From: a virus
DNA: 64,000 nucleotides
Virus record (IMG/VR): IMGVR_UViG_3300042485_001041
Location: 1-64,000 of that record
Direction: 5' to 3' (one strand)
The translations under genes and the position numbers were made by a program. Shown one piece after another: positions 24,869 through 58,284 of the stretch (position 1 is the stretch's first letter; each line of letters begins with the position of its first letter). The notes below the pieces were generated by a model. It was not told the DNA's origin. It saw only the letters and a list, made by a program, of their open reading frames with translations, and ran no database searches.

Positions 24869-24870
24869 TT

Positions 24871-25143
24871 ATGCGAAGCAAACCAAGAAGCCCACTTCTA
24901 GGTGGAAAACGTATGCTTGCAAATGAAATGCCAAAACCAGGTAGCAAGTATTTTCCAACATCAAAGGTAACCCCAGAAGAACATTTATCTCATCCTGAAA
25001 CACGTATTGGATTAGATCCAAATACTGGTAAATCAGTTGTATACAGCGGTGAACTTGGTGGACGCCATGTTGTTGATCCTGTTCCAGTAAGTGGTTCTTT
25101 TTTGGCTCGCAACTTCCATGATCGCAGAAAAAAAGGTAAGTAA
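24871..25143 (+). CDS. Small basic hypothetical protein
   Basis: 90 residues, basic. The middle reads HPETRIGLDPNTGKSVVYSG then GRHVVDPVPVSGSFLARNF, which looks like a small folded unit. The C-terminus KKGK provides the GGTAAG-TAA sequence before the next ATG. Unknown. Confidence 0.5.
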   Translation: MRSKPRSPLLGGKRMLANEMPKPGSKYFPTSKVTPEEHLSHPETRIGLDPNTGKSVVYSGELGGRHVVDPVPVSGSFLARNFHDRRKKGK

Positions 25144-25292
25144 TGTTTGGTAACTTGTCCAGCCCTCAATTTGGCAGTTCAATGCCTAAACCTAAAATGG
25201 GTGCAAGCGCAGGTCCTCTTGGGTCTTCTAATATGCCTAACCAATCAGGTTCTATGGGCAGCAAAATGATGCCTATGAGAGGCGGAATGTAA
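25143..25292 (+). CDS. 49-residue Met/Ser/Gly-rich protein with NLSSPQF start
   Basis: It starts at an ATG sharing one base with the previous TAA. The sequence MFGNLSSPQFGSSMPKPKMG is low complexity and carries the recurrent tag at residues 4-10. The exact fit between flanking genes (2-base gap to the next) supports translation. Unknown function. Confidence 0.5.
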   Translation: MFGNLSSPQFGSSMPKPKMGASAGPLGSSNMPNQSGSMGSKMMPMRGGM

Positions 25293-25294
25293 TC

Positions 25295-25684: not shown

Positions 25685-25686
25685 TC

Positions 25687-25872: not shown

Positions 25873-25874
25873 CT

Positions 25875-26165: not shown

Positions 26166-26167
26166 TC

Positions 26168-26485
26168 ATGGCACAAAGAGTTGCTAAAACTAATAGGGCA
26201 AAAGCCCCAGACTTTATTGCCAGCAAGATTCCTTTTGAGGCATCAGCGCTATCTGGCTTAGAAGGCTCACGCCACGATACTGGAATGATGCCAGAGAGTG
26301 AAGCATCACGTTACAAGAGCGCAAATCCTTCTTATACAGTTATGTCCTATGGAACCCCTATTGCCTGGCATGGTGATAGCGGTTGGGATATGTCAGCAGC
26401 AAAACATTCAAGAACTACTTCACGCCATCAAGGTATCGTTCGCCGCGCTATCTTCCAAGACGGCCATGATGGAGCACGTCAATAA
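26168..26485 (+). CDS. SYGTPIAWHG-domain protein (paralogue of the gene at 45411-45704)
   Basis: 105 residues. The C-terminal half has YTVMSYGTPIAWHG, then HSRTTSRHQGIVRRAIF. The reverse-strand protein at 45411-45704 carries the same signature (VYSYGTPIAWHG ... YSTTTSKHQGYVRRAI). The shared Trp-His-Gly and Thr-Thr-Ser-x-His-Gln residues suggest a small conserved domain. Its function is not known to me. Confidence 0.65.
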   Translation: MAQRVAKTNRAKAPDFIASKIPFEASALSGLEGSRHDTGMMPESEASRYKSANPSYTVMSYGTPIAWHGDSGWDMSAAKHSRTTSRHQGIVRRAIFQDGHDGARQ

Positions 26486-26658
26486 TGTCTAACCTTTCCT
26501 CTAATCAATTTAATAAGAAATCTTTTAAAAACATGGTTATGGGTGCTCGTCAAATTACAGGGAAAAATAAAAATAAGAAGTTAAAGCGCGACCCTAATCA
26601 ACGGATACCTAATCCATCAAAGGGTATTGGAATTGAGTACGCGAATAACAACGGATAA
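26485..26658 (+). CDS. 57-residue basic protein with NLSSNQF start
   Basis: The ATG shares a base with the preceding TAA. It begins MSNLSSNQFNKKSFKNMVMG, one of the clearest copies of the recurrent tag, followed by a Lys-rich tail. Unknown function. Confidence 0.55.
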   Translation: MSNLSSNQFNKKSFKNMVMGARQITGKNKNKKLKRDPNQRIPNPSKGIGIEYANNNG

Positions 26659-26661: not shown

Positions 26662-26693
26662 GTTAAGATAATCGGACTACTACAAGGAGCACA

Positions 26694-27517: not shown

Positions 27518-27534
27518 CCACATAAACTAGGGGT

Positions 27535-28473
27535 ATGAATCGCCCTGACGGATTAGACCAGATAGTCGGCCCAGTAGTCGTACAGGGTTCTGCTACCTCT
27601 TACTTCTCATCCCCAGAATCTGGGCTTGATCCAAAGTTATTTACTGGCACTACCTTAAATGGTTGGGTGCGTAATGGTTTGCTACAACTGCTATTTGGTT
27701 TCCTAGGCGAAGAATACCGTCACTCAGATATTTGGGCAAAGGTATGGATCGCTGGTTCTGGCGTATCCTACCAATGGTCTGCTGCTCGTGAGCCAGGAGA
27801 CTTAGATGTTCTAATTGGCGTTGACTACATTCAATTCCGCAAAGCACATCCAGAGTATTCAGGTCTAACTGATCTTGAAATTAGCAAGATGCTTAATGAA
27901 GATTTCCGCGAGCACTTACAACCAGAGACAAAGAACTGGAACGGTTACGAAGTAACTTTCTATGTTAATCCTGGCGCTACAGATATTAGATCAATCAAAC
28001 CATACGCTGCCTATGACTTGACTCATAGCGAGTGGACTGTCTTCCCTGAAAGATTTGGCGCTCCACATAACGCTGTATGGGAAGAGATGGCAATCAGAGA
28101 TCGCACTAATGCGATGGATATTGTTGCTCGTTACTCAAAAGCGATGACAGATGTACGTGGAGCACAGAACGATCCAGCACGCCGTAACGCAGAGTCACGG
28201 CTACAACAGGCGCTGATGCAGGGTCATATGTTGTTTGATGACCTTCACGCAGCACGTCGCTTAGCATTTAGTTCTACAGGGCAGGGTTACTCTGACTTCT
28301 ATAACTACCGCTGGCAAGCAGGTAAGAAGTATGGAACTGTACCTGCTCTTCGTCAGATGCACGAGTACTGGCAAGCATCTAAGAAAAAAGAAGCAGATGA
28401 AACTTACGGTATTGAACTACCAGATACCAACACCTTGATTCGTAGAGCAGCAACGTATAGGGCAAAAGGATGA
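27535..28473 (+). CDS. Nucleotidyltransferase-like protein
   Basis: 312 residues. AGSGVSYQWSAAREPGDLDV near residues 74-93 carries the G-S...D-x-D core of pol-beta-type nucleotidyltransferases. A third acidic position may be in GYEVTFYVN. The rest is helical. No antitoxin-like neighbour is obvious. It could modify RNA, nucleotides or proteins. A TAAACT box ends 6 bases before the ATG (leaderless signature). Confidence 0.65.
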   Translation: MNRPDGLDQIVGPVVVQGSATSYFSSPESGLDPKLFTGTTLNGWVRNGLLQLLFGFLGEEYRHSDIWAKVWIAGSGVSYQWSAAREPGDLDVLIGVDYIQFRKAHPEYSGLTDLEISKMLNEDFREHLQPETKNWNGYEVTFYVNPGATDIRSIKPYAAYDLTHSEWTVFPERFGAPHNAVWEEMAIRDRTNAMDIVARYSKAMTDVRGAQNDPARRNAESRLQQALMQGHMLFDDLHAARRLAFSSTGQGYSDFYNYRWQAGKKYGTVPALRQMHEYWQASKKKEADETYGIELPDTNTLIRRAATYRAKG

Positions 28474-28994
28474 GTCAAGATTACGTAGGTCAACACTCTG
28501 CGCCAGATCCTGAATTTGGTGCTCCGATGCACGATGTCACTGCTAATGGTATGTACCCAAAAGATTTTTATGAAAAATCTCATCACTATGTTAGCGGTGC
28601 TGAAACAGGTTCACACGAATCAATGAGCGCAGTTCGTGCTGTTAAAGGTAAACGGCACGCTTATGTAACTGTGTATCGTGCTGTGCCTCACGGAGTAAAA
28701 GGCGCAAAGATTAATGAAGGAGACTGGGTTACTCCCTCAAGAGAGTACGCCAAAGAACATGGTCGCTCTAACTTAAATAGCAAATATAGAATTATTAGTG
28801 TTAAAGCAAAAGCAGGACATCTTTGGAACGATGCTAACTCTATAAACGAATGGGGCTATCATCCATCGGCTCATATAGAGCCTCGTACCCCCGAAGAGAA
28901 TGCAAAAAGACAAGCAGACTTTGCAGCCCTTAACGAACGTTTGCAATCTAGAAAGGCTCATTTACAAGCCTTTGAAGAAGGAGCAGGAAGATGA
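28470..28994 (+). CDS. ADP-ribosyltransferase-like protein
   Basis: 174 residues overlapping the nucleotidyltransferase by 4 bases. The middle follows the phage ART pattern: VTVYRAVPHGV (Arg), GDWVTPSREYAKEHG (Ser/Thr strand), then LWNDANSINEWGYHP (Glu near 129). Such domains transfer ADP-ribose from NAD to proteins and are often carried in virions. The C-terminal 40 residues are a charged helix. Confidence 0.65.
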   Translation: MSQDYVGQHSAPDPEFGAPMHDVTANGMYPKDFYEKSHHYVSGAETGSHESMSAVRAVKGKRHAYVTVYRAVPHGVKGAKINEGDWVTPSREYAKEHGRSNLNSKYRIISVKAKAGHLWNDANSINEWGYHPSAHIEPRTPEENAKRQADFAALNERLQSRKAHLQAFEEGAGR

Positions 28995-29443
28995 GCGCAC
29001 GTAATTTATCTTTGGCACAGCACCTTGCTGCTGGTCAACTACCTATGTTTATGACAGGTAAAGAGATACAGACTCATTTACATCCCTTTCATGGTGATCG
29101 TGAAGGGGTGGCCACAGACAAGCCAGATCCAGAAGAATGGGGTGGCAAAGAACTTCGACCAGAAACTAATAAAGAAGTGTGGGAAAGAAAGTACGACGAG
29201 TCAGTAACTAATGCTGACATGGGTGGCGCAGAGCACGGTGATAAGTACAGTAACTTGGCACAGGATATAGCCCATGAAGGTTTTAAATCCCCCCGTATTC
29301 CTGTAAACCTAGACAGACAAGAGGTATTGGGTGGTCATCATAGAGTTGCAGTTGGGGCTGAAGAGCACCCTAACCATCTTTTTCCAGTAGTACATTATGA
29401 CAACATACACGAAGCAAGGCATCAATTAAAAGAGCACTATTAA
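28991..29443 (+). CDS. Tagged ParB/sulfiredoxin-like (GHHR) protein
   Basis: 150 residues starting MSARNLSLAQHLAAGQLPMF, the tag plus the MFMT segment seen again at 53413 and 54771. The C-terminal part has SPRIPVNLDRQEVLGGHHRV, the G-H-H-R turn of ParB N-terminal/sulfiredoxin-fold domains. It could be a nuclease or phosphotransfer domain; catalytic activity is not shown. Confidence 0.6.
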   Translation: MSARNLSLAQHLAAGQLPMFMTGKEIQTHLHPFHGDREGVATDKPDPEEWGGKELRPETNKEVWERKYDESVTNADMGGAEHGDKYSNLAQDIAHEGFKSPRIPVNLDRQEVLGGHHRVAVGAEEHPNHLFPVVHYDNIHEARHQLKEHY

Positions 29444-29450
29444 GGACTAA

Positions 29451-29939: not shown

Positions 29940-31444
29940 TGAATATCATCTTTTCTGGCGCTGAGGTAGGTTCTAATCGAACTCTCCTGGAGGGCCAAAA
30001 AGTTACTTACATGGGCATCAACTACTTTAACTTGCGTAAGCGGGGATTGCCCAAAACTAAGTTGTGGCTTATAAGCGAACACTTTACTCCAGAAACTCAG
30101 GTCTATATCGAGTCTGGGGCTAAGCAAGCCGAGAAGAATAACCTATCCCGCCAAGAGTTAGTTGACTTGGCCGCTGACTATCAAGAGTTTCTTGTCAACA
30201 ATGCCGACCGAGCATTTGCCTTTACTGAGTTCGATTCAACAGTATTGGGTTTGGAATGGGTGAAAGAACAGCGCCCCTTTTTCAGTAACGATCCAAAACT
30301 ATGGGTAGTATGGCATCAAGAGTACGGGATGCAGGAGTTAGCATCTATGTCCGAATTATACCGAAATGTCGTTATACCTAATGAAGCAATAGAAGCCCTA
30401 ACTAACTTGGCGGCCCTAACAAGGAGTTACTCCAGACAGTTTGGAACTAACTTTCATGCCCTGGCTTGTGCTAAACCCGACAACCTAAGACAGATACCAT
30501 TTGCCACAGCAAGCACAATGTCATGGCTTTCACCCATGCGTAGAGGTGAGACGATCGTCTGGGATGGAAGCAAGTTAGTCCGTTATCCAAAACGAATGAA
30601 GGATCAAGCACGACCTCGCTACAAGGCAATACTACAGAGCGCAGGACTAGACTATTCAGCGTTTACCGCAGATACTAACCAAGAAGGCACTAAGGTAGCC
30701 GTCTGGTCATACAAGAAACTAGAGGAATCAATGGACAAGAAATCACCTAACTTCCACATCATCGAGGGTGGTAAAGAGCCCCTAGTATCTGATAACAGCG
30801 ATGACACCTTATACAGTGGTTTGATGGAATTAGGGGGTATACCTTCTGATAACAGTGGTGTTGAGATGCGGAAAAAAGAACCAACAGAAGTGATTCAACG
30901 CTCCCCAGAAGAGATGCAGAATCTCCCTGTTTTTGGTTTTAAGATGAAAACAATTGTCGATACCGATGATGAAGGTCGAGAGGTTTTAAAAGATGTTCCA
31001 GTTATTCAAACGCAAAATTCGTCGCTACGTCAATGTGACACTTGCTTTGTCGCCGCTAACTGTCCTGCTTTCAAGCCTAGTAATAATTGCGCTTTTAATC
31101 TCCCAGTAGAAGTAAAGACTAAAGATCAACTCAAAGCATTAATGACTGCAATGATTGAAATGCAGGGGCAAAGAGTTGCTTTTATGCGTTTTGCTGAAGA
31201 AATGAATGGTGGATACGCAGATCCCAATGTATCTCAAGAAATAGATCGCCTATTTAAATTGGTTGGCAATCTTAAAGATATGGAAACCAATAAAGAGTTT
31301 ATCCAGATCACAGCACAGCGCCAATCTTCTGGCGGAGTTCTCTCTGCGATCTTTGGAGATCGTGCTCAGGCACTCCGAGAGTTGCCAGAAACTCTAAAAG
31401 AAGAGAGTGTGACAAGGATCATCTCGGAATCTATCGAAGACTAA
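29939..31444 (+). CDS. Large two-part protein: TIM-barrel (TGT/DpdA-like?) plus Cys cluster
   Basis: 501 residues. The first ~240 residues show a TIM-barrel-like order (VYIESGAKQAEKN near 60; KLWVVWHQEYG; FHALACAKPDNLRQIPFATA near 183) that resembles tRNA-guanine-transglycosylase/DpdA proteins. The C-terminal part has CDTCFVAANCPAF...C near 365, then a helical tail with MQGQRVAFMRFAEE. The similarity is by eye only. If right, it could edit DNA or RNA bases. It precedes the ribonucleotide reductase. Confidence 0.45.
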   Translation: MNIIFSGAEVGSNRTLLEGQKVTYMGINYFNLRKRGLPKTKLWLISEHFTPETQVYIESGAKQAEKNNLSRQELVDLAADYQEFLVNNADRAFAFTEFDSTVLGLEWVKEQRPFFSNDPKLWVVWHQEYGMQELASMSELYRNVVIPNEAIEALTNLAALTRSYSRQFGTNFHALACAKPDNLRQIPFATASTMSWLSPMRRGETIVWDGSKLVRYPKRMKDQARPRYKAILQSAGLDYSAFTADTNQEGTKVAVWSYKKLEESMDKKSPNFHIIEGGKEPLVSDNSDDTLYSGLMELGGIPSDNSGVEMRKKEPTEVIQRSPEEMQNLPVFGFKMKTIVDTDDEGREVLKDVPVIQTQNSSLRQCDTCFVAANCPAFKPSNNCAFNLPVEVKTKDQLKALMTAMIEMQGQRVAFMRFAEEMNGGYADPNVSQEIDRLFKLVGNLKDMETNKEFIQITAQRQSSGGVLSAIFGDRAQALRELPETLKEESVTRIISESIED

Positions 31445-37251: not shown

Positions 37252-37521
37252 TTAAAACTCCTTCGCTACTGATTGATACTTGTGGCGTTGCTCTCTGCGC
37301 TTTAAGTTCTGGCGTTCACCTTCGGTAAGTCCACCGAAGATCCCGTAAGCGACATTATTAGTTAGCGCGAAAGTAAGGCACGCATTCTTATCTGCTGGCT
37401 TACAACTGGCGCATAGTGACTTTGCTTCGTGAATCTTTAAGTGTTCAGTCGGGTCTGGAAAGAATATATCTGGGTCATTAGCCGACTGACAGGGCGCATC
37501 TATGATCTCGTATCTAGCCAT
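37252..37521 (-). CDS. WhiB-family Fe-S regulator (second copy)
   Basis: 89 residues. Cysteines at 11, 37, 40 and 48 and the GIFGGLT turn at 60-66 define WhiB. This copy has the standard C-x2-C (unlike 17926-18261) and a basic tail. Lies in the reverse-strand block, so it may control lysogeny or the divergent promoters. Confidence 0.85.
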   Translation of the reverse strand: MARYEIIDAPCQSANDPDIFFPDPTEHLKIHEAKSLCASCKPADKNACLTFALTNNVAYGIFGGLTEGERQNLKRREQRHKYQSVAKEF

Positions 37522-41054: not shown

Positions 41055-42980
41055 TTAGTTTCGAACGAGTCTGCGAGTGATCGCGTACTTCACGATCTTT
41101 CGAGCCATTCCAATTAGATCGAGTGGATTATTAATAACCGCACCGATCTCGCAACGATGTGAAGTTTCACTATCGAGAACGATCTGTTCGTTTGAATTGG
41201 GAATGTATGCGAACGCCGTTAACACGCCAGCACGAGCCATTCGATCGATCGCATCGTGAGTTTGCTTTAAGTCACCGCCCCATTCTCCGTCAGTAATGGC
41301 GAAGAAAATACGAACTGGTTTATCAGTTTCGGCAAGTAACTTAGTCGCGTACTTAACGGCTTGATCTGGCTCAGTACCGCCACCAGCACCAGCATCTCGA
41401 ATCACGCCAGTTGCTTTATCTTTTGCGCGATACAGCAGGTTAGTATCACTATTGAAAGTGATAACAGTTGTATTCGCATTGATCTTGTCGAGTGCGCGTT
41501 TAATTGCGTACATCGCCTTGTATGCCTTCTCTGCCTTATGACCAGACATCGAACCAGAGTTATCGAGAATGACTACGCATTCGATCTCGCAAGCATCTTC
41601 GATACCTTCATTCCATGAATCGAAAACAGTTTCGATGTCCTCTCCACGCAAGTAACGCCCTGCGTGTAAGCGACCACTCGACTCGTAAGTTTCCCAAGCA
41701 GGGTCATACGATGATTTCAACCGCAACAGTTCACGAGCGAATGTTGCTGATGCTTCAACAGTTTTAGAATCAGGGCGAAGCGAATTAAATCGCTCTAACT
41801 CTGGCTCTTTAGCGTTATTGGTAGCAAGAGAAGGTAAGCCACCAATCTGGCGCATGATGTCGCGGATTTCATCTGCGATCTCGGCACTAGTAAGAATGTC
41901 ATTCAGAGTTGATTGAAGTAACTCTGCTAGTTCGTTACCGACTCCGTCAGAACTTTCATCGTTGATTTCATCGTCACCATAATCTTCGAACTCGACTTGA
42001 TCGATGTCTAATTCGATAGTTGGTTTTGATTTCATCTTCTCTGCGAGTTCGGCATCGTCTGCCTGATCTAATTTAGAAGCACGATCTGAATCGCGCTTCT
42101 GTTGTTTAGGTGGTTGAGGGCGTGAAGCCATAGAGGACTCGATACCTTCGTGTGGGCGATTGCCATGACCGAATGGGTCATTGAGAATGACATTGAAATC
42201 GCCTTCTTTGCCCTCTCCAGCAGGTTTAACTTTGATCTGGGTGCTTCCACCTTCACCAGAGCCGTCACCGCTTCCAGAGCCGTCACCTTTGGGCAACAGC
42301 GTATGGAATCGCGCTATTAATTCTTTCCCTTTTTCAGTATCAGTAGGGAATACAAGTAAGCGATAAGCATCGACTATCTCGCATATTTCAGCGATATTTT
42401 CTTGCTCTGGATACGCATTACGAGAGTTCGCTCTAATTTGAACAGGTAAGTATCTGCGACCACGAAGTAGCGGATACGAATTAACGAAGGCATCTGGCTT
42501 CTCTACGAAGTGAATCAGAATCGTAGAAGTAAACCAATCAACAGTTGAGGGATAGCGAGTAGTAAATAAAGTTTCTATTCGCTGATCTTCAAGTGCGTTA
42601 TATGCCGAGAAGTAATTGTTATCTCTAACGAACTCGAAGATGTCTGAACCTTCTCGTGCTGTATAGAGAATGTGACTGATCTCGTGAAGATCAAGCCCTT
42701 TAAGTCCAGCGATTGATTTAGCATCATTTAGATCGCCAATTAATCGTGAATTAAAAGTTACTTCACTAGCACCAGAGTAAGCAGGTGAGTTCATCGATGA
42801 ATGCTCGACCTTTACAGTCACCTTGCGGAAAGTGAATGCTGAGTTCACTCGACCGAATAAGTGACAGAAGCGTTCGATCTTCTGGCGATGTAGTTCTGCT
42901 TCATCGCGCTGGCGCATTAGCGCACCAGCATCTAGCCCTTGTAGAAGTTCATCTACTTGGTCATGTATTGAACCGCGCAT
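41055..42980 (-). CDS. VWA-domain protein with zincin-like HExxH (CobT-like)
   Basis: 641 residues. An N-terminal segment contains HEISH near 102, a zincin-type motif. A Gly/Ser-rich acidic linker (residues ~235-360) follows, then a VWA domain with MIDAS DNSGSMSG near 472, T in GGGTEPDQ and ITDGEWGG. Paired with the MoxR-type ATPase upstream, as in CobS/CobT and RavA/ViaA systems. The pair probably remodels a protein complex or inserts metal; the target is unknown. Confidence 0.75.
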   Translation of the reverse strand: MRGSIHDQVDELLQGLDAGALMRQRDEAELHRQKIERFCHLFGRVNSAFTFRKVTVKVEHSSMNSPAYSGASEVTFNSRLIGDLNDAKSIAGLKGLDLHEISHILYTAREGSDIFEFVRDNNYFSAYNALEDQRIETLFTTRYPSTVDWFTSTILIHFVEKPDAFVNSYPLLRGRRYLPVQIRANSRNAYPEQENIAEICEIVDAYRLLVFPTDTEKGKELIARFHTLLPKGDGSGSGDGSGEGGSTQIKVKPAGEGKEGDFNVILNDPFGHGNRPHEGIESSMASRPQPPKQQKRDSDRASKLDQADDAELAEKMKSKPTIELDIDQVEFEDYGDDEINDESSDGVGNELAELLQSTLNDILTSAEIADEIRDIMRQIGGLPSLATNNAKEPELERFNSLRPDSKTVEASATFARELLRLKSSYDPAWETYESSGRLHAGRYLRGEDIETVFDSWNEGIEDACEIECVVILDNSGSMSGHKAEKAYKAMYAIKRALDKINANTTVITFNSDTNLLYRAKDKATGVIRDAGAGGGTEPDQAVKYATKLLAETDKPVRIFFAITDGEWGGDLKQTHDAIDRMARAGVLTAFAYIPNSNEQIVLDSETSHRCEIGAVINNPLDLIGMARKIVKYAITRRLVRN

Positions 42981-42990
42981 GGAGTCCTCT

Positions 42991-43860
42991 CTAAGCGTTC
43001 GCGTACTCGGTTGTAATGGACTCTACGGCTATGCCCAAGTCCTCTTTGATGTTGTAACCAGCACCTTCTAAGAGCATCTTTACAGCAGGTCGCTCTTCTT
43101 CGGTGAAGTTATTAGTAAAGATTTCGCACGCTAGATCGTATGACAATTCTTTCGAAATCTTCTCGAAAGTTTTTAGAATGCGAGATGTAATTGGAGTTTC
43201 GAAGATCGTTGCGTTATTGGAGTGTGAACCACTAGAAGATGTAGAGCGCATTCCGTAAGCAAGATCAAGCAGAGCAGGTGAAGCGATGTATTGACTTTCA
43301 ACAGCGCGATCGAAATCGTAATGAAGTTTGATCTCGAAGCGATCTGCTAATTGCTCTGGTAGTGGTTGAGAGCCACGATAGTTTGGATTGAAGTCAGCGA
43401 TGATTAATAGATCAGGGTGCGCCTTAATAACTTCGCCCTTGTGTCCTAGAAGCGTAATAACACGCGAGAAGTCCAGAAGTGGAAGTACGAAGTGTTTAGC
43501 GTTCTTGGCTAACTTATCGATCTCACCAAGATTGAGAATGCCACCATGACGAACTAAGTTTACGATCTGCGAATCGACCCACTCTAGTTTTCCATTTTCA
43601 TCTGGCACATAAGAGCCTTGAAGTTCCGAAGCACTTAATGAATCGTTCGAAGGCACATTGTAATAAGGCAAGCCACGAAGCGAAGCGATGTATTGAGCGA
43701 ATGAAGATTTACCAGTACCAGAATGTCCGAAGTTAAGGATATTCATTTTGTTTTTGATTGCGTAATCTGCGATTGCGATTTCAGATACGCCAGCGAATGA
43801 TCGTGGCACATAATGCGCCATTGAATCGAGCGAAGGTATAAATTGGTTGATCGTTGACAT
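42991..43860 (-). CDS. MoxR/CobS-type AAA+ ATPase
   Basis: 289 residues. Walker A GHSGTGKSS at 45-53, ELQGSYVPDENGKLEW (MoxR loop), Walker B GILNLGEIDKL near 115, sensor 1 IIADFNPNYRG and LPEQLADRFEI. Acts with the downstream VWA protein (11-base gap). Such pairs are recurrent in large phages. Confidence 0.82.
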   Translation of the reverse strand: MSTINQFIPSLDSMAHYVPRSFAGVSEIAIADYAIKNKMNILNFGHSGTGKSSFAQYIASLRGLPYYNVPSNDSLSASELQGSYVPDENGKLEWVDSQIVNLVRHGGILNLGEIDKLAKNAKHFVLPLLDFSRVITLLGHKGEVIKAHPDLLIIADFNPNYRGSQPLPEQLADRFEIKLHYDFDRAVESQYIASPALLDLAYGMRSTSSSGSHSNNATIFETPITSRILKTFEKISKELSYDLACEIFTNNFTEEERPAVKMLLEGAGYNIKEDLGIAVESITTEYANA

Positions 43861-48065: not shown

Positions 48066-48749
48066 GTGCCGAGCCAGGTGTCAGACACGGTTGACGACTT
48101 TTACGCTGAGGCAGTGCGGATTTTAAGCCATAATCGCCATATGCCCGCTCACAGCGTCTGCCGCACCTGCGGAAAGAAGATTAAGCAAGAAGGCTCCACT
48201 TGGAGTTCTCATTTGGGCGATAAGTGCTGGGGCAAGGGCACCCACAACCCCGTTCACACCGTTATCTCAGAAGGCTTAAAATCGGCCCCAGTATCAGTTC
48301 CTAGTCGTTTGCTTAATGAAACCTTGTTTCGTGGGTTGCCAGGTACTAAGTTGGAGACTCCACTTGGAATGCACTGGTCATCTGTATCGGGGCTTGACCA
48401 CGTTTCTGGTTATTCGGGAGGAATAGGTAGTGGCGCTAGTCTATTTTCTGGCGGAGAAGGTAAAAAGGGCGAGAAGTCAACTATCATTCACGCTAAGGTA
48501 AACAACCGAGCAATCATCAACCCTCGCTCATCAGAGGGTAAGAAGATGGCTGGTCGTCATCAAATTTGGGGCGGAGGAGCCCCTGAGTACGAAGAGACGG
48601 TTCGCCCTGGTGCAAACGTTGAAGTAACTAAGTTAACTCGTGTACGTAACGTTACCGATGCCTCTCATGACGAATCTGGTAAGTACACTCCAGCGGTAAC
48701 AAAGCAACGAGAGATCCGTTACAAGAAACCAAGACAGGTACAAGCATAA
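48066..48749 (+). CDS. ADP-ribosyltransferase-like protein with N-terminal zinc motif
   Basis: 227 residues from GTG 48066 (start uncertain; GTG 48078 and ATG 48141 are alternatives). An N-terminal zinc motif (CRTCGKKI ... CWGKGTH) is followed by an ART-like domain: LFRGLPG (Arg), GMHWSSVSG (Ser), and E-rich YEETVRPGANVEV. The two neighbours (48749, 49602) carry the same layout, so these are tandem paralogues. NAD-dependent ADP-ribosylation is the predicted activity. Confidence 0.55.
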   Translation: MPSQVSDTVDDFYAEAVRILSHNRHMPAHSVCRTCGKKIKQEGSTWSSHLGDKCWGKGTHNPVHTVISEGLKSAPVSVPSRLLNETLFRGLPGTKLETPLGMHWSSVSGLDHVSGYSGGIGSGASLFSGGEGKKGEKSTIIHAKVNNRAIINPRSSEGKKMAGRHQIWGGGAPEYEETVRPGANVEVTKLTRVRNVTDASHDESGKYTPAVTKQREIRYKKPRQVQA

Positions 48750-49171
48750 TGGCCGCTCAAGACAACCTTTCAGAAGCCTTGTTCACCGTGCCTCTGCATC
48801 GTGGGGTAAAGAGCACCTCTACCCTTAGTAACCCTGTAGGAATCCACTGGACAGACGTACCTAAAGTTGCAGAGAAGTTTGCAAGGGCAAAGGTCATGTA
48901 TCCCAATGAACGAGGTTCTGGAAGAGTCATCCATGGCAAAGTTAACGAAAAAGCCATTGTTGATAAAAAGTCTAAAGAAGGTCGCACATTACGTAAACTT
49001 CATGGAATTGAGCCCTACGAGAACGAACATGAGAATACCGTAAGACCAGGAGCCACTGTACTTGTTACAGGGTCTACTCGCATAACCCACACAGTTGATC
49101 CCAAGGGCAAAGAGAAGATAGAACGCCGTAGAGAACGACGTTATAACCCACCACGACAGGTGCGTGCATAA
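48749..49171 (+). CDS. Tagged ADP-ribosyltransferase-like protein
   Basis: 140 residues. Starts MAAQDNLSEALFTVPLHRGV: tag, then ART Arg strand. GIHWTDVPKVAEKFA and HENTVRPGATVLV match the copy at 48066 position by position, while that copy has a zinc motif in place of the tag. Ends in Arg-rich RRERRYNPPRQVRA. One-base overlap with both neighbours. Confidence 0.6.
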   Translation: MAAQDNLSEALFTVPLHRGVKSTSTLSNPVGIHWTDVPKVAEKFARAKVMYPNERGSGRVIHGKVNEKAIVDKKSKEGRTLRKLHGIEPYENEHENTVRPGATVLVTGSTRITHTVDPKGKEKIERRRERRYNPPRQVRA

Positions 49172-49602
49172 TGGCTGCCTCAGACAACCTATCTCCTAAA
49201 CAGTTCAACAGGCCTCTAGTACGCCCTGCTGAGATGGCAGACCCAGATATGCGGCCAGGAGCAAAGAACTACCCTCGTAAGAAATTTAACGTACATGCAG
49301 AGATGGGTAAGTCATGGAAGGCCGTGACACCACCTAATTCCTTTGACATGAAGACAGGTGCTCCGCTACCTGTACAGCCAGGCGCTATCTCTATCGTCAC
49401 ACCTGAAAACGGAGATGCATGGACTAATTGGCCTGAACATACTGACCCAGACAAAATTCGCATGGCTAAGAAGTTAGTTAAGAACAACTTGACTCGTGAA
49501 GCCCAGAAGAGCAGAGACCCAAAGGTTCGTATGCAATCACGTCAAGCCTCTTACAAGGCTAACCAGATTCAATCTGCTATTCAGAATCGTACAAATAAAT
49601 AA
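49171..49602 (+). CDS. Tagged basic protein of unknown function
   Basis: 143 residues beginning MAASDNLSPKQFNRPLVRPA, a textbook copy of the tag. The rest is Pro/Lys-rich with PPNSFDMKTGAPLPVQPGA and a helical, basic C-terminus. It has no ART signature. Possibly nucleic-acid binding. Confidence 0.6.
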   Translation: MAASDNLSPKQFNRPLVRPAEMADPDMRPGAKNYPRKKFNVHAEMGKSWKAVTPPNSFDMKTGAPLPVQPGAISIVTPENGDAWTNWPEHTDPDKIRMAKKLVKNNLTREAQKSRDPKVRMQSRQASYKANQIQSAIQNRTNK

Positions 49603-50081
49603 TGGCTGCCTCAGACCACCTAGGACCTCAGTGGAGTCAACCTGAACTAACTTTTCAAGTACACCGTGGACTTACTCGTAAGCCTCAAAAGGGTAGATGG
49701 CTAGGTATGCACTGGTCAGCAGATCCAGCGGTAGCAAGAAGGTTTGCTGGGCCGTTTGGCCACGTTGTACATGGTGAGGTACCAATGAGTTCTGTTGAGA
49801 CAGATACTGGCACTCTAAGAAGTGAGCGCGTTATTGACGATTCTAAAGTTAAAGAGCCATACAAACAAGAGAAAGAAGTGTCAGTTACGGTTGGCAAGCC
49901 TGTAAAGGTCACTGGCGTAACTGGTCCTGAAGCAGATAAAGAGACAGGTAACTGGAACGGAGTGCGTCGCACTACTCCCAACTCAAATACCGCAACTACG
50001 GCTGAGTGGCAAGAAGCCATGAAGAATAAGCGTCCAGCAAGAAAGCGCACCTATAAAAAGCCAAGAGAGATGACAGCCTAA
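49602..50081 (+). CDS. Tagged ADP-ribosyltransferase-like protein
   Basis: 159 residues. Tag variant MAASDHLGPQWSQPE, then FQVHRGLTRKPQKG (Arg), GMHWSADPAVARRFAG (Ser strand and helix) and VVHGEVPMSS. The third motif Glu is less clear (EKEVSVTVGKPVKV). C-terminus basic. Third member of the tandem ART-like group. Confidence 0.55.
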   Translation: MAASDHLGPQWSQPELTFQVHRGLTRKPQKGRWLGMHWSADPAVARRFAGPFGHVVHGEVPMSSVETDTGTLRSERVIDDSKVKEPYKQEKEVSVTVGKPVKVTGVTGPEADKETGNWNGVRRTTPNSNTATTAEWQEAMKNKRPARKRTYKKPREMTA

Positions 50082-50455
50082 TGGCCGCTGAAGATAACTT
50101 AAGCAATGCCCAGTGGCATCAGTTGGAGATGTACAAAACAGCCAAGGACTTGTATGGGCACAGACTCTCTGATGTAGAGGTGGAACATGACCGTCTTAAA
50201 AACGATGAAGGCATAGACCCTGAAGAACACGATGTAGATGTTAAAGGTTGGGTTATGGATCGTAAATTATCCGAAAGCAAAAGAAGCGGCCTGTACAGCA
50301 ATATCAAAAGTCGTGGAGTTACAGATCCTGTAAGTTTAGGTCAAGGTCGTTGGGGCGTGTATAAACGAGGTGTCGTAAGTGATGGACACCACCGCATTGC
50401 TGCCGCAAACGATATTGACCCTAATATGTTAGTTCCAGTAGAGCATCAGAAATAG
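50081..50455 (+). CDS. Tagged ParB/sulfiredoxin-like (GHHR) protein
   Basis: 124 residues. Starts MAAEDNLSNAQWHQLEMYKT. The second half has SNIKSRGVTDPVSLGQGRWG then VVSDGHHRIAAANDIDPNML, the ParB/Srx G-H-H-R turn. One-base overlap upstream. Confidence 0.6.
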   Translation: MAAEDNLSNAQWHQLEMYKTAKDLYGHRLSDVEVEHDRLKNDEGIDPEEHDVDVKGWVMDRKLSESKRSGLYSNIKSRGVTDPVSLGQGRWGVYKRGVVSDGHHRIAAANDIDPNMLVPVEHQK

Positions 50456-50522: not shown

Positions 50523-50765
50523 ATGGAAAAAGACCCTAAAGAGTTGTGGGCAGACTCCATGGCTAGACAAGATATGACCCAGATGTGGCATAACCACTCT
50601 CAGTCTAAAGGGGATAAAGAGCATAAAGGCATTCCCGCCTCCACCTGTCCAGCCTGTTTTGAGAACGACCCAGTAACAGTTGAACACTCTTACGAGTCTG
50701 ACCGTGAAGCGGCAAGAGGCCACTTGACTTCCCAACAATTTGATAAGATGTTTGGACACCTATGA
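50523..50765 (+). CDS. Small His/Cys hypothetical protein
   Basis: 80 residues. A zinc-like CPACFENDPVTVEH in the middle; C-terminus HLTSQQFDKMFGHL contains a tag-like LTSQQF. A TATCCT box ends 6 bases before the ATG and no Shine-Dalgarno is seen (leaderless signature). Confidence 0.5.
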   Translation: MEKDPKELWADSMARQDMTQMWHNHSQSKGDKEHKGIPASTCPACFENDPVTVEHSYESDREAARGHLTSQQFDKMFGHL

Positions 50766-50998
50766 GCCAAGAGAACTTAAGCCAAGAGCAATTCAAGGTA
50801 TATGACTTTGAGGCCGCTAAGAATATGAAGAAGAGCACTGGTCGTGCCGTTGCTTGGCAGAAGGACAATGACGAGTATCACCCAGATACCAAGAAGCATG
50901 ATGATGAGGCTCTGGCTATCCACGATGAGCCAGCCAAGCCAGATAACATGGCAGTTAAAGCCGCCAAGTTCATTGGCCTGATGGACCCAATCGGCTAA
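50762..50998 (+). CDS. Tagged small charged protein
   Basis: 78 residues beginning MSQENLSQEQFKVYDFEAAK (tag). The rest is charged and helical (KKHDDEALAIHDEPAKPDNM). Unknown; 4-base overlap upstream. Confidence 0.5.
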   Translation: MSQENLSQEQFKVYDFEAAKNMKKSTGRAVAWQKDNDEYHPDTKKHDDEALAIHDEPAKPDNMAVKAAKFIGLMDPIG

Positions 50999-51421
50999 AT
51001 GGTTGCTTCAGATAACCTATCTCCCAAACAGTTCAACCGTTTGAGCATGGGCGCCCCTATTGTAAAAAATTTAGGTATTGTCGCTCACGATCCTAAAGAA
51101 GACGATACTGAAGAAGGTTTTAATCGTACAGAGGCTATGTACGCTAATAAAGAGCACCATAATCCAGGTGACATGTGGGACATGCCTTCCTCAGAAGAGT
51201 TACATACAACTCAAAGCGTTTTAAACAAATCTACGATTAGACACTTTGTAGATAACCCTAATAACCCTGAAGAGTGGAAAGATGGCGAAGGCTACAACGC
51301 TCCAGAGGTTTACACTCACCAGGGTAAGTTGTGGGTTCACGAAGGCCACCATCGCCTTATCGCCTCTCGTTTAAGGGGAGACTCAAGTACAAAAGTTCAT
51401 CACTGGGATACTGGTCAGTAA
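50999..51421 (+). CDS. Tagged ParB/sulfiredoxin-like (GHHR) protein
   Basis: 140 residues. Starts MVASDNLSPKQFNRLSMGAP; the tag portion SDNLSPKQFNR is identical to that of 49171. The C-terminal part has LWVHEGHHRLIASRLRGD. Mid-section acidic. Starts directly after the previous stop. Confidence 0.58.
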   Translation: MVASDNLSPKQFNRLSMGAPIVKNLGIVAHDPKEDDTEEGFNRTEAMYANKEHHNPGDMWDMPSSEELHTTQSVLNKSTIRHFVDNPNNPEEWKDGEGYNAPEVYTHQGKLWVHEGHHRLIASRLRGDSSTKVHHWDTGQ

Positions 51422-51888
51422 TGGCTGAGTTTCACTCAGAATGGGGCCACGGCTATCAACCAGCCCCACCTACCAATTTAAACCTTAAGCAGTTTGCTCC
51501 ACACATTCGCTACGAAGTTCCACAGGCAGATAAGCCATTTGGCAATGCGGCAACTAACTTTGGCCTACATACTGCTGGCGTAGAACTGACAACCCAGGCA
51601 CCAGACTCAGATAAGCCATCTGAGACCCTTGGACACCTCCATTGGCATGCAACACGAGGTGAGATACTAGATGTCCACGTTGTTCCAGGCGCACGACGTA
51701 AGGGCGTTGCTACAGCGTTACTTGCTGCTGCAAAAGATGTTGCAGCAAAAACAGGTGTGCCAGCGCCAGTTCACTCAAAAGATAGAAGTGACATGGGTGA
51801 TAAGTGGGCAAAATCAGTCGGCGGCGAAATGCCAGAGCGTTTAAAGATCGGTGGAATACAAGATTTTGAGGGTATTCTTAAAAAATAA
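51421..51888 (+). CDS. GNAT-family acetyltransferase
   Basis: 155 residues from ATG 51421 (shares one base with the preceding stop). LDVHVVPGARRKGVATALLA is the acetyl-CoA-binding R/Q-x-x-G-x-A/G signature. A tag-like NLNLKQFAPHIRYEV lies at residues ~19-33. Predicted to acetylate a small molecule or protein. Confidence 0.75.
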   Translation: MAEFHSEWGHGYQPAPPTNLNLKQFAPHIRYEVPQADKPFGNAATNFGLHTAGVELTTQAPDSDKPSETLGHLHWHATRGEILDVHVVPGARRKGVATALLAAAKDVAAKTGVPAPVHSKDRSDMGDKWAKSVGGEMPERLKIGGIQDFEGILKK

Positions 51889-53412: not shown

Positions 53413-53916
53413 ATGATGAAGCGCCCACCTAAAGATTTAGGTCAAGCATTGAAGGCTGGCTATCAGCCTATGTTTATGACTGGTGGCGAAGTTAAGAAGC
53501 ACTTTGCTCCTTATAAGCAAGATCGTCAATACAAACCAGGCGGAGTCAAAGAAACTGATCAAGAGTTGTGGGATCGCAAGTTAACTGAATCAAAACAAAC
53601 TGGTGAACAAAGATATGGCAAAGATGCTTTTGAAAGAGATAGCCGAGGTGCATGGCGCAGTTTGTCTGGCCCTGATTTAGTTCGTCGAGGAATTGGTGCA
53701 AAGACTTCTCTAGAGTCAGTTGCTCAGAGTAAAGGCATGCCTGGTGGCGCACTTCACTTACAAGATAACAATTTAGGTTCTCCATCTGGAAAACCACAGG
53801 TACTAGGTGGCCATCACCGTGTCGCCTTATCTGCCGCACAATTTCCAGAACATTTATTTCCAATTAAATATGCGCCACACATCGATGCCGCTAGAAGCGA
53901 ACCAGGTTACCGATGA
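53413..53916 (+). CDS. ParB/sulfiredoxin-like (GHHR) protein with MFMT segment
   Basis: 167 residues. Starts KRPPKDLGQALKAGYQPMFM, which aligns with the start of 28991, then PYKQD and a long variable part. GKPQVLGGHHRVALSAAQFP gives the GHHR turn. A TACAAT box ends 7 bases before the ATG. Confidence 0.6.
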   Translation: MMKRPPKDLGQALKAGYQPMFMTGGEVKKHFAPYKQDRQYKPGGVKETDQELWDRKLTESKQTGEQRYGKDAFERDSRGAWRSLSGPDLVRRGIGAKTSLESVAQSKGMPGGALHLQDNNLGSPSGKPQVLGGHHRVALSAAQFPEHLFPIKYAPHIDAARSEPGYR

Positions 53917-54194
53917 AAGAATACTCACTAGGCGGATTTGCGGGAAAGATCTCCGAAAAGGTTAGCCCATACACAAAAACACGAGTAAGTGTCTATCACT
54001 CAGAGCAAGCAGGCTTTGATCACTCAGATGGTCAGCGTTATACAACAATCTGCGAAGATCACGGCAACCTTGTCTCCACTCGCTCACAAGGTGCGGCAAA
54101 GTCTGCAGCGGTTAACCCAATTGACTGGTGTGAAGATTGTCAAGAAAAAGGTAAGACACTAACTGATCACTTCAACGATGGAGCGGCTAAGTAA
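53913..54194 (+). CDS. Small zinc-binding protein
   Basis: 93 residues. RYTTICEDHGNLVSTRSQGA then PIDWCEDCQEK supplies C-x2-H and C-x2-C, a small zinc fold widespread in actinophages. 4-base overlap with the previous gene. Function unknown. Confidence 0.58.
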   Translation: MKEYSLGGFAGKISEKVSPYTKTRVSVYHSEQAGFDHSDGQRYTTICEDHGNLVSTRSQGAAKSAAVNPIDWCEDCQEKGKTLTDHFNDGAAK

Positions 54195-54565
54195 TGAGCG
54201 CATCAGACCACTTAAACCCTAGTCAGTTTAATACTTACTACCATGCTACTGATGAGCACTCGGCAGAGTCTATTAAAAAAACAGGTCTTCGCAACGGCAC
54301 CTACATGACTCCTCATCTAGATGTCGCTAATGATTATGGGACTCACATATTCAAAGTACATGTGCCAAAGAGCCATACCTTTGCAAGCAGTCCAGATCAT
54401 TATTACGAGAGTGACTTCATTCCTAGAGAACACCAAGGCTATGTAACTGAAGAGCACCCTAATTCAGCAGACCGTGTGCACATGGAATCTAGCAAGTTAA
54501 AAATAGAAGGCCCAAAGAGTATGGAAGAGTGGCTCGGTAACAAAAGTGGAAACTGGCGTGCATGA
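54194..54565 (+). CDS. Tagged ADP-ribosyltransferase-like protein
   Basis: 123 residues. Tag MSASDHLNPSQFN, then NTYYHATDEHSAESIKKTGL, TYMTPHLDVANDYGTHIFKV: the Y-H-A-T, and T...A..Y strand-helix of PARP/ART-like folds. A final Glu may be in DFIPREHQGYVTEEH. Different ART subtype from 48066-50081. Confidence 0.55.
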   Translation: MSASDHLNPSQFNTYYHATDEHSAESIKKTGLRNGTYMTPHLDVANDYGTHIFKVHVPKSHTFASSPDHYYESDFIPREHQGYVTEEHPNSADRVHMESSKLKIEGPKSMEEWLGNKSGNWRA

Positions 54566-54774
54566 GCCGTAAAGATAACTTTGAAGCAGCACATGTTGCT
54601 GCTCGTGAGATTGCTCCAGGTGACTACCTTGATGCATCAATGAAGTTACGTGTACATGCAGCCAAAATGATTGGCAATGACTTTGTTGTAGCCCATAAGT
54701 TACGTGGCTCTAAGGCACCTGGCGTATCTATGTATAAGCCAGATGAGAAAGTTAGAGTGTGGCGTAAGAAATGA
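54562..54774 (+). CDS. Small basic protein
   Basis: 70 residues, 4-base overlap. AHVAAREIAPGDYLDASMKL then VVAHKLRGSKAPGVSMYK; a small beta domain is likely. Unknown. Confidence 0.5.
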   Translation: MSRKDNFEAAHVAAREIAPGDYLDASMKLRVHAAKMIGNDFVVAHKLRGSKAPGVSMYKPDEKVRVWRKK

Positions 54775-55097
54775 GCGCTGAAGATAATCTTTCGTATGAA
54801 CAACTTGCTATGTTCATGACTCCTAAAGAAATTAAATCTAAATATGATGTTTCTGAGGGCGAGTACTCCGATGACGAACATGAGCCTAATCAGTTATACG
54901 CACGTAAGCGTCGTGAGGCTAAGAAAAGCGGTTTGTTTAAGAAAATAAGAAAAGAAGGCGTTCAAATTCCAGTTCAACTTTCTTCAGCAGATAAAACTAT
55001 TGCAGATGGACATCACAGAGTTGCATCAGAACGAGACAACCGCTTAATGCCAGTAGAGCATTTAGAGCCTGAAGAGATCTGGTGGCGGAATAGATGA
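54771..55097 (+). CDS. Tagged ParB/sulfiredoxin-like (GHHR) protein
   Basis: 108 residues. MSAEDNLSYEQLAMFMTPKE combines the tag and MFMT segment. IPVQLSSADKTIADGHHRVA gives GHHR, with MPVEHLEPEEI after. 4-base overlaps on both sides. Confidence 0.6.
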   Translation: MSAEDNLSYEQLAMFMTPKEIKSKYDVSEGEYSDDEHEPNQLYARKRREAKKSGLFKKIRKEGVQIPVQLSSADKTIADGHHRVASERDNRLMPVEHLEPEEIWWRNR

Positions 55098-55219
55098 ACA
55101 ACATATCCGCTACGCAATTTGGCGCTCAAATAATGCCAAAAGAAACGTATGTCAATGTAGCGATGCAGATGACGCCTCCATCAGAGGCCTCTAACACAGC
55201 AAGTAGTACAAAAGCATGA
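55094..55219 (+). CDS. 41-residue tagged microprotein
   Basis: ATG 55094 (ATGA overlap) to TGA 55217-55219. MNNISATQFGAQIMPKETYV has a tag-like start and then Met/Ser/Thr. It may be a tag with no effector domain. Unknown. Confidence 0.5.
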   Translation: MNNISATQFGAQIMPKETYVNVAMQMTPPSEASNTASSTKA

Positions 55220-56466: not shown

Positions 56467-57015
56467 ATGACAACTATTGTAGGAGTGCAATATAAGGACC
56501 GCTGTGTTCTGGCGGCCGATAACCAGGTAACTGGTGACGGCGGTCGTAGATACAACCATCCAGAGATGAAGAAGATCTCTCAACGTGGTGCGTTCTTAAT
56601 CGCAGGTAGTGGTGAAGTAATGCCTTGCGATGTTGTCCAGCATATGTGGGTTCCGCCAAAACTTACGGCAAAAGATGGCGAAGACATTTACCACTTCATG
56701 ATTACCAAAGCAATGCCTTCTCTCAGAAAATGCTTAACTGATAACGGTTATGACTTCAATGAGGGTAAGGGAGATGGAAAAGCGGAAGAAAACCGCTTTA
56801 GTTTCATCCTTGCTGTTGGTGGAGAACTATTTGATGTAGCCGATGATCTATCAGTCATTCGGTCAGGAGATGGGATCTACGGAGTAGGTTCTGGGTCTTC
56901 TTATGCAGTTGGTGCGTTACACGCTGGAGCAAAGCCCTCTGAGGCTATTGAGATTGCCTCAAGGCTAGATGTCAATACTTCTGGGCCAATTCAGGTAGTG
57001 GAGCAACTTAAGTAA
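56467..57015 (+). CDS. HslV/proteasome-beta-like Ntn hydrolase
   Basis: 182 residues. Starts MTTIVGVQYKDRCVLAADNQ; the Thr after Met is the expected N-terminal nucleophile. KKISQRGAFLIAGSG and GIYGVGSGSSYAVGALHAG and DVNTSGPIQVV match HslV/20S beta-subunit strands. Without an ATPase partner nearby its role is open: prohead protease, or a peptidase. A TATCCT box ends 7 bases before the ATG. Confidence 0.75.
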   Translation: MTTIVGVQYKDRCVLAADNQVTGDGGRRYNHPEMKKISQRGAFLIAGSGEVMPCDVVQHMWVPPKLTAKDGEDIYHFMITKAMPSLRKCLTDNGYDFNEGKGDGKAEENRFSFILAVGGELFDVADDLSVIRSGDGIYGVGSGSSYAVGALHAGAKPSEAIEIASRLDVNTSGPIQVVEQLK

Positions 57016-57959: not shown

Positions 57960-58121
57960 TCAATCATTTGTTTTCTCCAATTTATGCTTGTGCTCACAAT
58001 ATCGTGCCAGACTTGCAACTACAAATATCTTACGGCAGTATGAGCAAGTAAACCTTTTTAGGTCATCCACTCCACCATTATGTCCGTACACCGAGAGATA
58101 AAAGGGGCAAAATAGAGACAT
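57960..58121 (-). CDS. Small C2H2-like zinc finger protein
   Basis: 53 residues from ATG 58121 (start uncertain; GTG 58070 is possible). CSYCRKIFVVASLARYCEHK gives C-x2-C...H-x-H spacing close to a C2H2 finger. Divergent from the gene starting at 58120. Unknown. Confidence 0.4.
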   Translation of the reverse strand: MSLFCPFYLSVYGHNGGVDDLKRFTCSYCRKIFVVASLARYCEHKHKLEKTND

Positions 58122-58284
58122 GTTATCTGAGCCACAATTTAAGGAAAAGGCTAGTATCGAACTAAACGGTGCGATGCCTATGGACTCTAAGTTTGATGGC
58201 CCTTCATCTCCTAAAGCAAACAAACAAGATGGAGTGATGGTAGCGAATAAAGACCTGATGCTTGCTAAGCCAGGGTTCTTTTAA
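58120..58284 (+). CDS. 54-residue protein with LSEPQF start
   Basis: ATG 58120 with AAAGGGG 12 bases upstream; ends TAA 58282-58284, which shares a base with the next ATG. MLSEPQFKEKASIELNGAMP resembles the tag without the leading Asn. Unknown. Confidence 0.5.
   Translation: MLSEPQFKEKASIELNGAMPMDSKFDGPSSPKANKQDGVMVANKDLMLAKPGFF

What the first reader, a model, noticed from the sequence alone, without database searches (positions are those of the whole stretch)
48066..50081. Tandem ADP-ribosyltransferase-like paralogues with swapped N-termini
Three near-adjacent proteins (48066, 48749, 49602) share R-G ... H-W-S/T and, in two, E-x-x-x-TVRPGA. The first has a zinc-motif N-terminus where the others carry the tag. 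Two more ART-like proteins of other subtypes are at 28470 and 54194. Five ARTs suggest a polymorphic set of host-modifying enzymes.
Basis: partly seen in the sequence, partly recalled or inferred. Interest (0 to 1): 0.62.

Follow-up and report, generated by a model that had tools for sequence, protein, structure and literature searches.

The report
Tagged phage enzymes, likely injected
A freshwater actinobacterial phage and its relatives put the same 12-amino-acid tag on the front of many small, unrelated enzymes, among them several kinds of ADP-ribosyltransferase, which suggests a shared delivery label (most likely for loading them into the virus particle) that nobody seems to have described.

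Summary
The ORFs and motifs are real. 48066, 48749 and 49602 are one family. Its AlphaFold model (pLDDT 88) has no ART match in the PDB by Foldseek, but once the tag is removed its profile matches T4 ModA/ModB (80-84% probability; controls at most 2.7%), aligning the R, S/T and ExE motifs. They are best read as divergent R-S-E ADP-ribosyltransferases. 54194 is an ART by fold (all top-50 PDB matches). 28470 is unproven; it is the C-terminal domain of a phage ParB-GNAT family (phrog_2579).

The larger finding is the N-terminal tag, M-[S/A]-A-x-D-N-L-S-x-x-Q-F. In this phage and about 40 related metagenomic phage contigs it sits on a dozen or more unrelated domains: Mod-like ARTs, Arr/PARP-like ARTs, ParB-like GHHR proteins, GNAT acetyltransferases and short peptides. 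Conservation stops sharply after the F. The arrays always share the strand of the nearby endolysin and HslV-like genes.

GNAT and the 28470-type domain occur fused in one protein beside virion genes in cultured actinophages. Best reading: a dispersed, tagged version of the injected 'polyvalent' proteins, the tag being a virion-loading signal. Tag modularity is shown; packaging is inferred (about 50%).

The parts
48066..48749 (+). Mod-like (R-S-E) ART, 227 aa, with a zinc-like N-terminal extension (CxxC ... HxxxxC) and an internal, decayed tag (LLNETLF, about residues 82-88); start codon uncertain
   Evidence: no relative of the extension found
48749..49171 (+). Tagged (MAAQDNLSEALF) Mod-like ART, 140 aa; conserved R18, H33-W34-S/T35, E95; C-terminal RxRxYxxPRxMxA
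   Evidence: (pLDDT 87.6, tag residues about 54); against:
49171..49602 (+). Tagged (MAASDNLSPKQF) 143-aa protein of unknown domain, between the ART paralogues
   Evidence: no family
49602..50081 (+). Mod-like ART, 159 aa, with a variant tag (MAASDHLGPQW); 58% identical to a tagged relative with MAAQDNLSKQQW
50081..50455 (+). Tagged (MAAEDNLSNAQW) ParB-like protein with DGHHR motif
   Evidence: phrog_1033, E 0.0027; GHHR invariant
50762..50998 (+). Tagged (MSQENLSQEQF) 78-aa protein, no known domain
50999..51421 (+). Tagged (MVASDNLSPKQF) ParB-like protein with EGHHR motif
51421..51888 (+). GNAT acetyltransferase with tag-like NLNLKQF about 18 residues in; start taken at the TAATG overlap
   Evidence: PF00583, 2.8e-6
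53413..53916 (+). ParB-like GHHR protein without a recognisable tag
54194..54565 (+). Tagged (MSASDHLNPSQF) ART of PARP/Tpt1 type (YHAT, conserved H17)
   Evidence: all 50 best PDB matches are ART-fold proteins; model confidence low
54562..54774 (+). Small protein with a degenerate tag (KDNFEAAHV); relatives in other phages carry the full tag
54771..55097 (+). Tagged (MSAEDNLSYEQL) ParB-like protein with DGHHR motif
55094..55219 (+). Tagged (MNNISATQF) 41-aa peptide, conserved in relatives (MPKEMYVNVAMQMTPPSEASNTASSTKA tail)
58120..58284 (+). 54-aa peptide with a degenerate tag (MLSEPQF) and conserved LAKPGFF end; relatives carry NLSMAQF
28470..28994 (+). Untagged protein homologous to the C-terminal domain of the ParB/GNAT family phrog_2579; ART-like motifs only
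   Evidence: (E 3.2e-36)
28991..29443 (+). ParB-like GGHHR protein with a variant tag (MSARNLSLAQHL)
25143..25292 (+). Tagged (MFGNLSSPQF) 49-aa basic protein
26485..26658 (+). Tagged (MSNLSSNQF) 57-aa basic protein

Best explanation
Shown: a 12-residue N-terminal tag, M-[S/A]-A-x-D-N-L-S-x-x-Q-F, is shared by many small proteins whose bodies are unrelated to each other: Mod-like R-S-E ARTs (48066, 48749, 49602), PARP/Tpt1-like (54194) and Arr-like ARTs, ParB-like GHHR proteins, GNAT acetyltransferases and short peptides. They form arrays at the start of the rightward gene series that runs into endolysin and, in this record, terminase, portal, scaffold and capsid. Inferred: the tag is a sorting signal that loads these proteins into the virion (as the T4 capsid-targeting sequence does for the T4 internal proteins), and they are injected with the DNA to modify host proteins or nucleic acids and to blunt defence. 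The set would be a dispersed, tagged form of the phage 'polyvalent proteins', in which such domains are fused in one polypeptide.
For: Modularity: with the tag, the two ART families match at 97%, the score coming chiefly from the tag; without it, 0.03% (split-family positive control 99.9%). Over 77 tails less than 50% identical (about five of them spurious), information is 2-5 bits per site across most of M...QF and mostly 0.2-0.7 after it; A(-3), S(-4) and D(-1) were not part of the selecting pattern. The tag is conserved as protein, with synonymous codons freely mixed, and is a low-confidence extension in the model. The tag's DNA pattern gives 44 stretches of viral contigs, nearly all with tagged genes. 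ART: Mod profile match 80-84%; 54194 fold; Arr-ms in 7 of 19 members, best 4.4e-6. Position: same strand as endolysin in 49/49 loci and HslV-like gene in 39/39, never the strand of the MoxR-like gene, 0/11 (some contigs counted twice). Precedent: GNAT plus 28470-type domain fused in one protein beside structural genes in Rhodococcus phage E3 and near the tail sheath gene in Gordonia phage Skog; Mycobacterium phages Phabba and ScoobyDoobyDoo carry ART-like proteins there with another shared N-terminus, TAREQxxxLxPW, also on Skog. ART and DdrB-like ParB domains are known or predicted virion cargo (PMC5512222).
Against: No virion proteome, structure or packaging assay of any tagged protein was available, so packaging is inferred from context and from the kind of cargo. 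The tag was not found among the proteins read in the closest cultured relative examined (Streptomyces phage LuckySocke, capsid 62% identical), so the particle can probably be built without it. Foldseek finds no ART for the 48749 model. Tagged proteins are not uniformly basic (pI 5-11). From general knowledge, ModA/ModB themselves, the nearest homologues, are made in the cell and not packaged (Alt is).
Confidence: 0.5

Rival explanations
1. The tag is a docking peptide for a host or phage protein inside the infected cell (for example RNA polymerase, membrane or a protease adaptor). The enzymes are made during infection, like T4 ModA/ModB, and the tag brings them to one shared target or complex.
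For: Nearest homologues of the Mod-like family are intracellular enzymes. A short linear motif with a helical end suits docking. A conserved HslV-like peptidase gene lies close downstream of the arrays (phrog_1040, 7e-29), so a degradation or processing signal is also possible.
Against: Peptides of 41-57 aa with no enzymatic domain carry the tag too, and the arrays sit at the head of the gene series that leads to lysis and capsid genes, which fits virion cargo better.
Confidence: 0.3
2. Trojan-horse toxins: the ARTs are made in infected bacteria to kill the protists that graze on them, as proposed for VIP2-like ARTs in freshwater actinophages.
For: Published idea for freshwater phage ARTs, some from phages of Actinobacteria (PMC6802176). 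The Mod-like family is of the same R-S-E type.
Against: The same tag is on ParB-like, GNAT and peptide proteins, which are not such toxins. No secretion signal was apparent in the tagged proteins read by eye. The profile relation tested is to phage host-modifying Mod enzymes.
Confidence: 0.08
3. The 48066/48749/49602 family is not an ART; the R, HWS/T and ExE resemblance is a coincidence of a small beta-rich fold.
For: High-confidence model (pLDDT 87.6) without any ART among the 50 best PDB matches. No Pfam or PDB sequence match.
Against: Mod profile match 80-84% against at most 0.5% for 40 column-shuffled copies and at most 2.7% for other families, with the three catalytic motifs in register. 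R18, W34 and E95 are among the few (nearly) invariant residues.
Confidence: 0.15
4. The common N-terminus reflects recent gene duplication or a DNA recombination site or start-region effect, not a protein signal.
For: Genes are tandem and overlap by TAATG.
Against: Tails are unrelated, synonymous codons are freely mixed at the tag positions, and conservation stops sharply after the F.
Confidence: 0.03

Closest known systems
Phage T4 ModA/ModB ADP-ribosyltransferases
   Same: R-S-E motif set and order; profile homology 80-84%
   Different: These are shorter, carry the N-terminal tag and a conserved C-terminal RxRxYxxPRxMxA, have H-W before the S/T, and occur in multi-gene arrays; targets unknown
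Phage polyvalent proteins (Iyer et al. 2017, PMC5512222)
   Same: Same kinds of domains (ART, ParB-like and others) in phage, proposed to be packaged and injected
   Different: There 2-15 domains lie in one long polypeptide; here each domain is a separate small protein and a common tag takes the place of the fusion
phrog_2579 proteins of cultured actinophages (Rhodococcus phage E3 gp206, Gordonia phage Skog gp173)
   Same: 28470 is their C-terminal domain (E 3e-36); GNAT domains of the same kind; genes lie by virion structural or tail sheath genes
   Different: Domains fused in one protein; no NLSxxQF tag (Skog, Phabba and ScoobyDoobyDoo have TAREQxxxLxPW instead)
T4 capsid-targeting sequence (internal proteins, Alt)
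   Same: A short N-terminal peptide on diverse proteins, proposed role in head loading
   Different: No sequence relation claimed; packaging and cleavage of the tag here untested
Rifampin ADP-ribosyltransferase Arr (PF12120)
   Same: Tagged YHGT proteins of related phages match Arr-ms (best 4.4e-6) and NCBIfam rifampin_ARR (best 0.00064)
   Different: Tagged, phage-borne, substrate unknown; not claimed as resistance enzymes
Freshwater actinophage VIP2-like ARTs ('Trojan horse', PMC6802176)
   Same: ART genes in freshwater phages, some of Actinobacteria
   Different: A term search of that paper found no mention of ParB, acetyltransferase or N-terminal; it treats the ARTs as anti-eukaryote toxins

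Membership tests
R-S-E ADP-ribosyltransferases (Mod type): 48066, 48749, 49602 | Conserved R, S/T-containing second strand and ExE in order | tested here: met
   conservation (R18, HW-S/T35, E95) and register with ModA/ModB
R-S-E ADP-ribosyltransferases (Mod type): 48066, 48749, 49602 | Significant profile similarity to known members | tested here: met
   hhalign 80-84%, controls at most 2.7%, shuffles at most 0.5%
R-S-E ADP-ribosyltransferases (Mod type): 48066, 48749, 49602 | ART fold by structure comparison | tested here: inconclusive
   Good model, order of strands and helices compatible by eye, but no ART in the PDB list
R-S-E ADP-ribosyltransferases (Mod type): 48066, 48749, 49602 | NAD-dependent transferase activity | not testable with these tools
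   Needs an enzyme assay
PARP/Tpt1-type ART: 54194 | ART fold | tested here: met
   All top-50 Foldseek PDB matches are PARPs, Tpt1/KptA or toxin-type ARTs; each alone has E above 0.1 and the model is weak
ART: 28470 | Profile relation to an ART family | tested here: inconclusive
   0.1% to Mod; member of phrog_2579, annotated as ParB C-terminal domain
Polyvalent proteins | Several effector domains in one polypeptide | tested here: not met
   The tagged proteins are short chains, median 114 aa, maximum 199
Polyvalent proteins / packaged effectors | Presence in the virion and injection | not testable with these tools
   No proteome held; only genomic position and cargo kind
Capsid-targeting sequence (T4 type) | Short N-terminal peptide common to unrelated proteins | tested here: met
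Capsid-targeting sequence (T4 type) | Drives entry into the prohead and is cut by the prohead protease | not testable with these tools
   Needs packaging assay or virion N-terminal peptides

The most novel reading that the evidence does not exclude
NLSxxQF is an undescribed general loading signal by which a large group of freshwater actinobacterial myophages packs an exchangeable arsenal of single-domain enzymes (three kinds of ART, ParB-like, GNAT, others) into the virion for injection, a modular alternative to polyvalent proteins.
Probability: 0.45. Interest if true: 0.85.

Novelty: new variant of a known kind. Interest (0 to 1): 0.62.

Why it matters
If the tag is a loading signal, the cargo of a whole phage group could be read off genomes by a 12-residue motif, giving a ready list of host-directed enzymes from phages of abundant freshwater bacteria. 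It would also give a short, portable peptide for putting proteins into phage particles and would show that packaged effector sets can be built by tagging instead of by domain fusion. The Arr, Mod and PARP-type ARTs on one tag also bear on the 'Trojan horse' reading of freshwater phage ARTs, which the rest of the tagged set makes less likely.

Tried and rejected
Foldseek of the 48749 model in PDB: no ART; in BFVD mainly uncultured phage proteins of the same family and weak others. Pfam and PDB sequence searches of the Mod-like family: nothing useful. tblastn of three tagged proteins (two Mod-like, one Arr-like) and of the untagged 53413 in cultured phages: no match; one weak match for a 54194 relative led to ScoobyDoobyDoo. 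Relatives in bacterial genomes: none by protein; the DNA pattern gave 11 stretches in unrelated taxa from a far larger collection, taken as chance without checking each reading frame, so no host was learned that way. Relatives of the zinc-like extension: none. A Pfam scan for the ParB-like group gave nothing useful; PHROG support is weak, so the ParB-like label rests mostly on the GHHR motif. Sigma-70 promoters upstream of 48066: no more than in shuffles. PADLOC: only one weak, partial match. The literature searches made here did not turn up a description of the tag.

Full report
WHAT IS THERE. The window is part of an 81.2 kb virus record. A WhiB-like gene (37252-37521, minus; recognised by eye) points to an actinobacterial host. 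The major capsid protein is 62% and the large terminase about 53% identical to Streptomyces myophages of the LuckySocke/BRock group, with the same order terminase, portal, scaffold, capsid; tail sheath and tube genes were not recognised, so the record is probably incomplete. Genes from about 34 to 46 kb run leftward; from 48066 a rightward series begins that runs through the genes in question to endolysin (55676), an HslV-like peptidase (56467), and on to terminase, portal and capsid at 66-72 kb.

THE THREE PARALOGUES. 48749 finds 48066 and 49602 at E 1.7e-14 and 2e-6. Twenty members from this and related phages align with L7, R18, G31 and W34 invariant and N6, S8, G19, H33, F44, E95, R128 and Y132 nearly so, and nearly all full-length ones end in a variant of RxRxYxxPRxMxA. 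AlphaFold2 on that alignment gives pLDDT 87.6 and pTM 0.80, with the first ten residues at 54. Foldseek against the PDB gives no ART in the fifty matches shown and no significant match at all. Profile comparison of the tag-less family with eight T4-like ModA/ModB proteins gives 80-84%. The alignment puts R of LHRG on R of LYRG, the S/T of HW-S/T followed by D..VA..FA on the S/T of the Mod motif followed by D..IA..FA, and E.EV.V..G on the E.E...P.G of Mod. Controls: Arr-like family 2.7, ParB-like 0.2, GNAT 0.1, 28470 family 0.1, reversed family 0.1, and at most 0.5 in 40 column shuffles. I take the family as divergent Mod-type R-S-E ARTs, at about 85%.

THE OTHER TWO. 54194 has a weak model (pLDDT 64), but all fifty best PDB matches are ART-fold proteins, PARPs and Tpt1/KptA foremost. 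28470 matches the C-terminal part of phrog_2579 at E 3e-36 and has relatives in 171 cultured phage records, mostly of Mycobacterium. Its R and E motifs are suggestive only.

THE TAG. Gene starts in the record carry L-[SNG]-x-x-[QL]-[FWL] nine times against 0.38 expected (one of the nine is a doubtful ORF). Relatives of 48749 in viral contigs carry whole arrays of tagged genes, and a DNA pattern for M-x-A-x-D-N-L-S-x-x-Q-F alone retrieves 44 stretches of viral contigs, nearly all with tagged genes. In 16 records the shorter pattern occurs 36 times against 2 for the reversed pattern. The tagged bodies fall into many groups with no detectable similarity: Mod-like ARTs; Arr-like ARTs (Arr-ms in 7 of 19 members, best 4.4e-6; NCBIfam agrees weakly); 54194-type ARTs; ParB-like GHHR proteins; GNAT acetyltransferases; peptides of 41-43 and 54-57 aa; and others without a name. 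Profile comparison of the two ART families gives 97% with the tag and 0.03% without it. Over 77 tails below 50% identity (about five spurious), conservation is high through the F and then drops to mostly 0.2-0.7 bits; A(-3), S(-4) and D(-1) were not part of the selecting pattern, so that part of the signal is not made by the selection. Codons are freely mixed, which speaks for protein-level selection and against a recombination site. The tag was not seen among the LuckySocke proteins read, and the pattern in bacterial genomes gave only scattered matches in unrelated taxa.

48066. Its relative in L035 aligns from its tag, SNNLSQELFRG, to SRLLNETLFRG inside 48066. The zinc-like extension is thus in front of a tag remnant. 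Whether it is translated is unsure.

WHERE THE ARRAYS SIT. In every locus with an endolysin gene (49 of 49; some contigs were fetched twice) the tagged genes are on the same strand as endolysin, likewise for the HslV-like peptidase (39 of 39), and on the strand opposite to the MoxR-like gene in all 11 loci that hold it. The sets differ from contig to contig while the slot stays much the same.

PRECEDENT IN CULTURED PHAGES. Rhodococcus phage E3 gp206 and Gordonia phage Skog gp173 fuse a GNAT-like domain with a 28470-type domain; the first lies among genes annotated as structural proteins, the second a few genes ahead of the tail sheath gene. Phabba gp212 (28470 type) and ScoobyDoobyDoo gp114 (54194 type) lie in the corresponding place and share with Skog gp173 another N-terminus, TAREQxxxLxPW. 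phrog_2579 is named for ParB. So GNAT and 28470-type domains, here separate, are elsewhere joined in one protein next to virion genes. Polyvalent proteins with ART and ParB domains have been proposed to be packaged and injected (PMC5512222).

HOW IT MOST LIKELY WORKS. Shown: one tag on many unrelated domains, in a recurring slot ahead of lysis and head genes, with ART, ParB-like and GNAT cargo. Inferred: the tag docks these proteins in the prohead, and they go in with the DNA and modify host proteins or nucleic acids. I put virion loading at about 50%, docking to an intracellular partner at about 30%, the rest among other readings. The Trojan-horse idea for freshwater phage ARTs (PMC6802176) fits poorly with tagged ParB-like and GNAT proteins.

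NOVELTY. ART domains, ParB-like and GNAT domains in phages are known; Mod and Arr families are known. I found no description of the tag or of such arrays in the papers searched, but the library holds open-licence papers only. I therefore call it a new variant of a known kind.

Noticed in passing
window 56467-57015 (+): HslV/proteasome-like peptidase gene (phrog_1040, E 7e-29; Pfam Proteasome 3.9e-5) conserved close to the tagged arrays in 39 related loci; possibly a processing protease for tagged or head proteins.
   Followed up: partly
L028 8917-9531, L029 8938-9432, L085 2314-3438: Three proteins of cultured Mycobacterium and Gordonia phages with different domains share an N-terminus TAREQxxxLxPW, perhaps a second tag of the same kind; not seen on other proteins in the parts of Phabba that were read.
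   Followed up: partly
window 59103-62093 (+): 996-aa protein with an apparent signal peptide, PA14 and fn3 domains, proline/serine-rich and alanine/glutamate-rich repeat stretches; resembles a surface or adhesion protein.
   Followed up: no
window 41055-43860 (-): MoxR-like ATPase next to a large protein with a von Willebrand-like metal-site motif (DNSGSMSG), on the strand opposite to the tagged array in the related contigs that hold them.
   Followed up: no
L073 10482-16972 (record 74482-80972): Long fibre-like proteins with collagen-like GTQGTQG/GAQGTEG repeats (1062 and 1011 aa).
   Followed up: no
window 55094-55219 and relatives: Tagged 41-43 aa peptide whose tail (MPKEMYVNVAMQMTPPSEASNTASSTKA) is almost unchanged between phages although it has no known domain.
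   Followed up: no
window 21612-31444 versus L099: By eye, this stretch is collinear with about 90-99 kb of Streptomyces phage LuckySocke, except that 28470-29443 (the 28470 protein and a tagged ParB-like gene) looks inserted.
   Followed up: partly
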